Program-made: the position numbers and the translations under genes | Notes under the pieces: generated by a model | Seen by the model: only the letters and a program-made list of their open reading frames with translations | Database searches by the model: none | What the model was told of the DNA's origin: nothing | From: an uncultured Saprospiraceae bacterium | GTDB lineage: Bacteria > Bacteroidota > Bacteroidia > Chitinophagales > Saprospiraceae | Assembly (NCBI GenBank): GCA_937921555.1 | Contig: CAKZUV010000052.1 | Coordinates: forward strand, 1-34,622 | Direction: 5' to 3' | DNA: 34,622 nt | Shown here: piece after piece, positions 29,857 through 31,144 of the stretch | Layout of the letters: every line of letters starts with the position of its first letter | Position numbering within the stretch: the first letter of the stretch is position 1

Positions 29857-30339
29857 ATGAAATTTATCCCCGAATCTGTTATTGATCAAACTATTGAGCA
29901 GTTAAGTGTATCGGATTCACTCGATGCCGCCATCAAAGAATTGGCGGATGCCCAACCCTTTCTGGTCGCTTATCTTAGTTCCGAAACGACGGCTGCATTT
30001 TCTAACGAAGAAAAAGACTTTCTGTTTTTTGCCACCTCCGTAATCGTTGGTGCCATCGAAGCGGTCGAATCCAATCCAAAATTACTTAGCCTGGATGTAC
30101 TGACGGAGGCAGAAGAACAGAATTTTAAGATTCTCACAGAAACAAAAGGAAAGGAATTCAGGGACCGGATCACACCGTTTTTTGAGAACTATCCGCAAGA
30201 AGATTTGCTGGCTTTTGCAGAAGATGCCCTCGAAGAGGATGATGACAACATCATTACCGCCGAAGGAAGGGAGTATCTTTTTGTGATGCTAAAAACGATT
30301 ATTGATACTTTTCATCAACAGACGGACTCTGTCAAGTAA
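29857..30339 (+). CDS. Acidic hypothetical protein
   Basis: The 160-residue protein is predicted all-helical and strongly acidic (for example DALEEDDDN near residue 125), with no signal peptide, membrane span or cysteine. It starts 33 bp after the PD40/OmpA-like gene and is probably co-transcribed with it. I do not recognise a family. The 80-bp MITE-like element begins about 20 bp after its stop codon, and the hairpin of that element may now serve as its terminator. Confidence 0.7.
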   Translation: MKFIPESVIDQTIEQLSVSDSLDAAIKELADAQPFLVAYLSSETTAAFSNEEKDFLFFATSVIVGAIEAVESNPKLLSLDVLTEAEEQNFKILTETKGKEFRDRITPFFENYPQEDLLAFAEDALEEDDDNIITAEGREYLFVMLKTIIDTFHQQTDSVK

Positions 30340-30358
30340 TATCATTTAAGTTGACGCC

Positions 30359-30438
30359 CACACTACTGGACATTTCTCCCATTTTCTACCTCCCAGCCTA
30401 AAGGAGTAGCTCCAAATCCGCAAATGTCCAGTAGTGTG
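30359..30438. mobile_element. MITE-like element, 80 bp, with 17-bp terminal inverted repeats
   Basis: The ends are perfect 17-bp inverted repeats (CACACTACTGGACATTT at 30359-30375, its complement at 30422-30438). They are flanked directly by identical 9-bp sequences, GTTGACGCC at 30350-30358 and 30439-30447, as expected for a target-site duplication. The 46-bp interior has no meaningful ORF but contains a short palindrome (GGAGTAGCTCC at 30403-30413). The element sits between the convergent genes ending at 30339 and 30503 and could also act as a hairpin terminator. The parent insertion sequence is not in the window and the family is unknown. Confidence 0.8.
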
Positions 30439-30502
30439 GTTGACGCCTCTTTAATGCTGAAAAAGTGCTGATCCTCTGTGGTTTGCAAATGAGTTCAGTC
30501 AA

Positions 30503-31144
30503 TTACTGCAAAAATAAATTATGTTGTTTTTCGTAGCCAATCGATGTATCCGGGCCGTGTCCGGGATGAACGGCTACGTCATCTCCCAATGGAAACAATT
30601 GATCTTTGATGCTACCCAGCAAGGTCGCCATATCTCCGCCCGGCAAATCGGTACGGCCGATAGATTGAAAAAATAAAACATCTCCTGCAATGATAAATTT
30701 ATCCGCTTCGCAGTAAAAAGACAAACTCGCCGGTGAATGCCCTGGTGTAAACAAGGCCTTCAAAGACGTATTGCCAAAAAGAATCGTATCTCCGGTTTCA
30801 ATAAATCGTCCGGGGGATGGAGAAGGTTGGGGCAGCTGGATACCGTACACCTGACAGACCTGCGGAACGGCTTCGAGTACCGGCAATTCACCACGATGGA
30901 TTTCAAGTTCCAGACCATAAGTTTCAGCCACAAAAGCATTACCGAAAACATGATCCAGGTGACAATGGGTATTGATTAGCCGGACGGGTGTCCATTCGTT
31001 TTCACTGATGAAATTTTTTAATTCTTCGCGCTCCTTTTGAGTATAACACCCAGGATCGAAGATGATGCATTCACCGGTTTCATCCGAAACAATATAAGTG
31101 TTTTCCTGAAAAGGATTGAAGGTAAGCTTGGAAACAACCGCCAT
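30503..31144 (-). CDS. Metallo-beta-lactamase-fold hydrolase (glyoxalase II-like)
   Basis: The 213-residue protein has the complete MBL metal motifs: T-His60-C-His62-L-Asp64-His65 (THCHLDHVFGN), His136 in FTPGHSPAS, Asp155 in IAGDVLF, and His196 in HPGHGPDT. The N-terminal FNPFQENTYIVSDETGEC and the C-terminal SIGYEKQHNLFL match the YcbL/glyoxalase II-like branch, which hydrolyses thioesters such as S-lactoylglutathione or related thiols. It lacks the longer helical C-terminal domain of classical glyoxalase II. It is transcribed alone, divergent from the large envelope gene. Confidence 0.92.
   Translation of the reverse strand: MAVVSKLTFNPFQENTYIVSDETGECIIFDPGCYTQKEREELKNFISENEWTPVRLINTHCHLDHVFGNAFVAETYGLELEIHRGELPVLEAVPQVCQVYGIQLPQPSPSPGRFIETGDTILFGNTSLKALFTPGHSPASLSFYCEADKFIIAGDVLFFQSIGRTDLPGGDMATLLGSIKDQLFPLGDDVAVHPGHGPDTSIGYEKQHNLFLQ

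What the first reader, a model, noticed from the sequence alone, without database searches (positions are those of the whole stretch)
30350..30447. Compact MITE-like insertion with intact target-site duplication
An 80-bp unit with perfect 17-bp terminal inverted repeats and identical 9-bp flanks (GTTGACGCC) has the full signature of a recent non-autonomous transposition. On the minus strand the last 20 or so codons before the right-hand repeat end are an open frame ending in TAG at the left terminal repeat, which may be a transposase C-terminus left after internal deletion.
Basis: seen in the sequence. Interest (0 to 1): 0.6.

Follow-up and report, generated by a model that had tools for sequence, protein, structure and literature searches.

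The report
Small hitch-hiking mobile DNA element
A short stretch of DNA with no genes of its own has copied itself around this bacterium's genome, most likely by borrowing the enzyme of a larger jumping element found in related bacteria; this is a known kind of element, here in a new family.

Summary
Window 30359-30438 is an 80-bp unit with perfect 17-bp terminal inverted repeats (TIRs), flanked by identical 9-bp GTTGACGCC. It is a true MITE: 27 matches (some fragments) in the window's genome, and the element is in 5 of 6 sister species. Many copies have 9-bp target-site duplications (TSDs). At one copy (L011), four sister species have an empty site with one target copy.

The same ends bound MITEs with many different interiors (16 sequence clusters, 49-436 bp) in Saprospiraceae and relatives. 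They also bound full-length ~1.19-kb insertion sequences. The best has a 375-codon DDE transposase frame with the IS4-family Y(2)R(3)E(6)K motif and a perfect 9-bp TSD. Size, ends, motif and TSD length fit the IS4Sa subgroup.

In these elements the transposase stop lies inside the TIR (N-V-Q-TAG).

Limits: no transposase with these ends was found in the window's genome or genus. At the window's own site, sisters lack the MITE but also ~90 bp around it, so no single GTTGACGCC was seen. The terminator alternative is not supported. New family of a known kind.

The parts
30350..30358 (.). left 9-bp target-site duplication GTTGACGCC
   Evidence: 9/9 identical to 30439-30447
30359..30375 (+). left terminal inverted repeat CACACTACTGGACATTT
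   Evidence: same ends on full-length IS4-type elements
30363..30374 (-). N-V-Q-TAG read on the minus strand inside the left TIR (stop codon 30363-30365); same last codons as transposases P0001-P0003
30376..30421 (.). 46-bp interior, conserved within the genus, no detectable relation to the insertion sequences
30422..30438 (-). right terminal inverted repeat
30439..30447 (.). right 9-bp target-site duplication GTTGACGCC
29857..30339 (+). flanking gene, 160 aa, no Pfam match; the left duplication begins 10 bp past its stop
30503..31144 (-). flanking convergent gene, 213 aa, metallo-beta-lactamase-fold protein (Pfam PF00753)

Best explanation
The unit is a MITE, a non-autonomous transposon. A DDE transposase of the IS4 family (IS4Sa-like), supplied in trans by a full-length insertion sequence with the same ends, binds the 17-bp TIRs, cuts the 80-bp unit out and pastes it into a 9-bp staggered target with a weak palindromic G(T)...(A)C preference. 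Host repair then makes the 9-bp TSD. Shown here: dispersed copies with different TSDs, empty sites at copy L011, full-length elements with the same ends and 9-bp TSDs, conserved catalytic residues. Inferred: that this transposase moved this MITE, the cut-and-paste route (stated for the IS4 family in PMC2266710), and that the source element is lost from, or not assembled in, the window's genome.
For: 27 matches in the own genome. Element present in 6 of 7 genus genomes including the own. 9/9 TSDs: 7 of 18 elements (own genome), 8 of 17 (relatives), 31 of 87 (other genomes); with 8/9 a further 2, 3 and 23. Flanks dealt at random reach 8/9 or better in 2.8%, 3.6% and 0.7%. Copy L011: one target copy in sisters G001, G003, G005 and G002. 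Full-length L232, 1190 bp, TSD ACGGACTCT 9/9, 375-codon transposase frame; L237, 1255 bp, TSD CCTTCTAAT 9/9. Two insertions at Neolewinella antarctica contig ends with matching 9-bp TSDs. PF01609 in 5 of 5 transposases. The residues I take as the DDE triad are invariant in 6 of 6 aligned. TSD preference: G first or C last in 49 of 92 half-sites against 21% background.
Against: No transposase with these ends in the 7 genus genomes. The only long relative there (L273, own genome, 33% identity) has different ends; G001 has one partial match (44% over 53 residues) whose ends I did not examine. These are drafts, where insertion sequences are often missing. 9 of 18, 6 of 17 and 33 of 87 elements have 7/9 or fewer TSD matches. 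At the window's own site the target is not preserved in sisters. At copy L008 the G001 homologue lacks the element but the target bases align poorly. At the L011 site G006 has an unrelated ~96-bp insert. Full-length L233, L235, L236 and L238 show no TSD, and L235 has an altered frame. NCBIfam's best model (IS4_2) falls below its cut-off in 5 of 5 proteins.
Confidence: 0.88

Rival explanations
1. A conserved hairpin terminator (or bidirectional terminator) between the two convergent genes.
For: Lies between convergent genes; strong hairpin, -36.1 kcal/mol, z -5.84.
Against: No terminator-like site found in 30250-30600. Orthologous loci of 6 of 6 sisters lack the unit. Copies elsewhere carry different 9-bp TSDs and copy L011 has empty sites. 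A perfect stem is what perfect TIRs give.
Confidence: 0.03
2. A MITE moved by some other, unseen transposase of the genus that happens to use the same ends.
For: No matching insertion sequence found in the genus.
Against: Full-length IS4-type elements elsewhere in the family have ends identical over 17 bp (L234 both ends, L233 left end), and elements of the group with TSDs (L232, L237) have the same 9-bp length.
Confidence: 0.08
3. A REP/REPIN-type palindrome spread by a RAYT (Y1) transposase.
For: Short dispersed palindromic repeat; the nine copies tested interrupt no long open frame.
Against: Y1/RAYT systems make no TSD (recalled); here 9-bp TSDs are frequent, and the partner found is a DDE enzyme.
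Confidence: 0.01

Closest known systems
IS4 family, subgroup IS4Sa (PMC2266710, passages read)
   Same: The full-length partners: 1190-1255 bp, ends CA......T with a variable third base, single transposase frame, Y(2)R(3)E(6)K, 9-bp TSD (published range 8-10)
   Different: NCBIfam IS4_2 score below its cut-off; not placed in a tree with named IS4Sa elements. The MITE itself carries no transposase.
MITEAba12 of Acinetobacter with ISAba12 (PMC6382973, passages read)
   Same: About 0.1-kb element, 9-bp TSDs, identity to candidate parents restricted to the TIRs, spread over related species
   Different: Unrelated ends (candidate parents begin GGCTTTGTTG); from recall, an IS5-family partner. There a candidate parent resides in the same genome and a new insertion was seen in the laboratory.
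BrickBuilt MITE of Porphyromonas gingivalis (PMC4596501, passages read)
   Same: MITE of another Bacteroidota member
   Different: IS5-like ends, a minisatellite inside, TSDs of differing length
Tn5 target preference a-GntYWRanC-t (PMC3487940, one passage read)
   Same: 9-bp palindromic target with G first and C last
   Different: The preference here is weaker (about GTYTNARAC); ends and transposase were not compared with Tn5

Membership tests
MITE (non-autonomous DNA transposon) | short, TIRs, no transposase gene | tested here: met
   80 bp, 17-bp perfect TIRs
MITE (non-autonomous DNA transposon) | multiple dispersed copies with TSDs of fixed length | tested here: met
   9/9 TSD in 7 of 18 own-genome elements, 8/9 in 2, 7/9 or less in 9
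MITE (non-autonomous DNA transposon) | empty sites in relatives | tested here: met
   copy L011: single target copy in G001, G003, G005, G002 of six sisters. For the window's own copy: absent from 6 of 6 sisters but target not preserved
MITE (non-autonomous DNA transposon) | parent element with the same ends in the same genome | tested here: not met
   not found in own genome or genus drafts; found elsewhere in the family. I recall that orphan MITEs are accepted, so I do not treat this as excluding membership
IS4 family, subgroup IS4Sa (for the partner insertion sequences) | DDE transposase with Y(2)R(3)E(6)K, single frame | tested here: met
   P0001-P0005, 5 of 5, by reading alignment A1; PF01609 5 of 5. 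L235 (altered frame), L238 and partial copies were not in this set
IS4 family, subgroup IS4Sa (for the partner insertion sequences) | 1150-1750 bp, ends CA......T, TSD 8-10 bp | tested here: met
   against Table 1 of PMC2266710. 9/9 TSD in L232 and L237; none in L233, L235, L236, L238 (L238 ends begin TA, not CA); L234 has no right flank held
IS4 family, subgroup IS4Sa (for the partner insertion sequences) | NCBIfam curated score cut-off | tested here: not met
   best model NF033591 IS4_2: 112-146 bits against cut-off 152, 5 of 5 below
IS4 family, subgroup IS4Sa (for the partner insertion sequences) | clusters with named IS4Sa transposases in a tree | not tested
   no named IS4Sa reference sequences were at hand

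The most novel reading that the evidence does not exclude
One IS4Sa-like end and TSD specificity serves a whole bacterial order (Saprospirales and relatives): MITE families with unrelated interiors arise again and again around it. The 17-bp end stays fixed because it both binds the transposase and encodes its last residues and stop (N-V-Q-TAG), so DNA site and protein are locked together while MITEs outlive their parent elements.
Probability: 0.3. Interest if true: 0.45.

Novelty: new member of a known kind. Interest (0 to 1): 0.27.

Why it matters
It adds a MITE system to a little-studied group of bacteria, together with the likely enzyme that moves it, and gives ready markers of insertion (filled and empty sites). 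The many different interiors behind one conserved 17-bp end make a natural test of how TIR-only MITEs arise and how they persist once the parent element is gone.

Tried and rejected
Rejected: terminator (no terminator-like site; absent in sisters). RAYT repeat (TSDs). Internal-deletion derivative (no interior match to six IS sequences beyond chance-length words, best E 0.37; N. antarctica's own IS interior is not held and was not compared). Clustering of open frames near TIRs in the fetched loci gave no transposase. Of the weak hits to the 28-residue C-terminus, the frames in L221, L222 and L225 I read as glycosyltransferase-like and dropped; L223 and L224 showed no transposase-like frame. An exact-match scan of viral contigs for the N. 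antarctica IS end found nothing. phmmer against the PDB gave only E>=0.049, unrelated. In one search the G001 row (L263) was aligned in the wrong orientation and is not used; G001's gap comes coordinates. In one search the G002 homologue (L286) found no plus-strand match; it was read in the right orientation. One search stopped part-way on a script error; its first part is used and the rest was rerun.

Literature: the searches listed no paper that I recognised as naming this repeat or a MITE of Saprospirales; only 15 of 109 papers were listed. The library is open-licence PubMed Central only.

Full report
What is there. Window 30350-30447 reads GTTGACGCC - 80-bp unit - GTTGACGCC. The unit begins and ends with perfect 17-bp inverted repeats, CACACTACTGGACATTT. 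It lies between two convergent genes: a 160-aa protein without a Pfam match (29857-30339, +) and a metallo-beta-lactamase-fold protein (30503-31144, -). As RNA it folds into the hairpin that the repeats dictate (z -5.84), but there is no terminator-like site in 30250-30600.

Copies in the own genome and genus. The window's genome (5.44 Mb, 403 contigs) holds 27 matches at E<=0.001 including this one; several are halves or fragments. The closest copy, L002, is 99% identical over 82 bp. Of 60 genomes searched (own included) 7 match: six of the seven in the genus (not G005), plus G029 with a 22-bp match over the end only. With the longer query, after subtracting the two flanking-gene matches, the sisters show about 41 (G004), 22 (G003), 18 (G006), 16 (G001), 8 (G002) and 0 (G005) element matches.

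Target-site duplications. I paired TIRs 30-600 bp apart, with at most 4 mismatches each and 5 together, and dropped elements within 30 bp of a locus end. Own genome: 18 elements; 7 with 9/9, 2 with 8/9, 9 with fewer. Relatives, in 25 loci fetched (24 of the genus and one of G029; not all matches): 17 elements; 8 with 9/9, 3 with 8/9, 6 with fewer. Genome-contig loci with an exact TIR: 87 elements in 83 of 114 loci; 31 with 9/9, 23 with 8/9, 33 with fewer. Flanks dealt at random reach 8/9 or better in 2.8%, 3.6% and 0.7%. The 46 perfect TSDs share a weak palindromic preference: G first or C last in 49 of 92 half-sites against 21% background (p about 1e-11; elements of one family are not fully independent). 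The published Tn5 consensus a-GntYWRanC-t also has G first and C last (PMC3487940, passage read).

Empty sites. Copy L011: the filled site has TAGCCTGAC on both sides of a 75-bp element. Sisters G001, G003 and G005 have one 9-bp copy (TAGTCCTAC, TAGTCTTAC, TAGGATCAC) in an otherwise continuous alignment, and so has G002 (TAATCTTAC). G006 has there an insert of about 96 bp with other inverted-repeat ends, not this element. G004 gave only a weak partial match. At copy L008, G001 lacks the element, but the target bases align poorly. At the window's own site all six sisters lack the element. In five the matches to the two genes lie 3-7 bp apart, and in G005 about 270 bp of other sequence lies between (alignment, where the G001 row was misoriented and is ignored). 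The window genome carries about 90 bp more besides the element and its duplication, so a single GTTGACGCC was not seen.

A widely shared end. Most pair into short elements, with recurrent sizes such as 91, 124 and 184 bp, often several in one genome. Of the 74 elements with a TSD of 8/9 or better, from 49 to 436 bp, 73 have interiors of 20 bp or more; these fall into 16 clusters with no match between clusters at blastn E<=1e-4 (sizes 20, 13, 7, 7, 6, 4, 4, 3, 2 and seven singles). The window's family is the cluster of 20, from the own genome and its relatives. Strongly diverged interiors could still be related.

The autonomous partner. In the named genome of Neolewinella antarctica DSM 105096, four contigs end inside an element with near-identical ends. 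The flanks pair up as two insertions with TSDs GTTTTTGGC and GGAGGCAAG, and the interior is not in the held assembly. Its right end encodes an open C-terminus ending in the TIR. Searching 396 genomes of the order with those 28 residues gave 8 genomes at E<=0.1, five of which I read as false. Searching 398 genomes of the family (own included) with a 137-residue C-terminus gave 40 at E<=1e-4, many of them distant IS4-type relatives. Reading their ends: L232, 1190 bp, left end exact in its C/T variant and right end one mismatch off, TSD ACGGACTCT 9/9, 375-codon frame. L233, 1195 bp, perfect ends (C/T variant on the right), no TSD. L234, 1194 bp, both ends exactly the window's TIR, right flank not held. 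L235, 1193 bp, perfect ends, altered frame, no TSD. L236, 1253 bp, variant end ...ACATGA, no TSD. L237, 1255 bp, variant end ...ACATG, TSD CCTTCTAAT 9/9. L238, 1251 bp, ends TACACT..., no TSD. Genomes G495, G654 and G214 carry further copies of the ends.

The enzyme. P0001-P0005 all hit PF01609 above its cut-off. NCBIfam's best model is IS4_2, but all five fall below its cut-off (112-146 against 152 bits). In alignment A1 the residues I take as the DDE triad are invariant and Y(2)R(3)E(6)K is present in 5 of 5. Table 1 of 'IS4 family goes genomic' gives for IS4Sa 1150-1750 bp, ends CA......T and repeats of 8-10 bp, and the text a relaxed third base (PMC2266710, passages read). L232 and L237 fit each of these; the others fit on size and, except L238, on ends.

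In P0001, P0002 and P0003 the gene stops inside the TIR: K/Q-N-V-Q-TAG. The G249 copies end N-V-E-TAG, N. antarctica's ends N-V-TAG, P0004 and P0005 end H-V-Q-TAG, while L238 stops a few codons before its TIR. The MITE's left TIR read on the minus strand gives N-V-Q-TAG (30363-30374). The frame upstream in the MITE does not resemble these C-termini (by eye). So the frame is a by-product of an end that is also coding in the parent.

Limits. In the seven genus genomes the best relative of the transposase is L273 in the own genome (33% identity, ends TAAGGTACTATACACTTT, an apparent 10-bp TSD TGAGCAACTT read by eye), which is not the partner; G001 has one partial match of 53 residues, not followed. 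The source element is therefore lost, unassembled, or another enzyme. That the IS4Sa-like transposase moved this MITE is inferred from shared ends and TSD length, not shown.

Verdict. Real, well explained, ordinary in kind: a new MITE family with a probable IS4Sa-like partner. The unusual points are the breadth of one shared end and its double role as site and stop codon.

Noticed in passing
L022 207-407 (own genome contig C69): A second MITE-like insert of 201 bp nested in a copy of this element, with ends ACTACGG..GGCACAAGTAGTATTA and 8-bp repeats CCTTCAGG.
   Followed up: partly
L273 1403-2671 (own genome contig C65): A full-length IS4-type element with different ends (TAAGGTACTATACACTTT) and an apparent 10-bp TSD TGAGCAACTT.
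   Followed up: partly
L287 about 1405-1500 (sister G006 contig C230): An unrelated insert of about 96 bp with inverted-repeat ends (GAAGC.ATTTAAGAAT-like) at the very site where copy L011 sits in the own genome.
   Followed up: partly
window about 30319-30349 and 30448-30498: About 90 bp around the element is missing from five sisters, where the two convergent genes nearly abut; its origin is unknown.
   Followed up: no
L071 (G004 contig C669, 5491-5573): In sister G004 another copy sits on the other side of the same metallo-beta-lactamase-fold gene, an independent insertion.
   Followed up: no
L091, L109: The exact 17-mer also occurs in contigs labelled Calditrichaeota and Thermoanaerobaculia; transfer or misbinned contigs.
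   Followed up: no
L012 1504-1626 (own genome contig C54): A full copy runs into a second half-copy, giving a 123-bp compound element without matching flanks.
   Followed up: no
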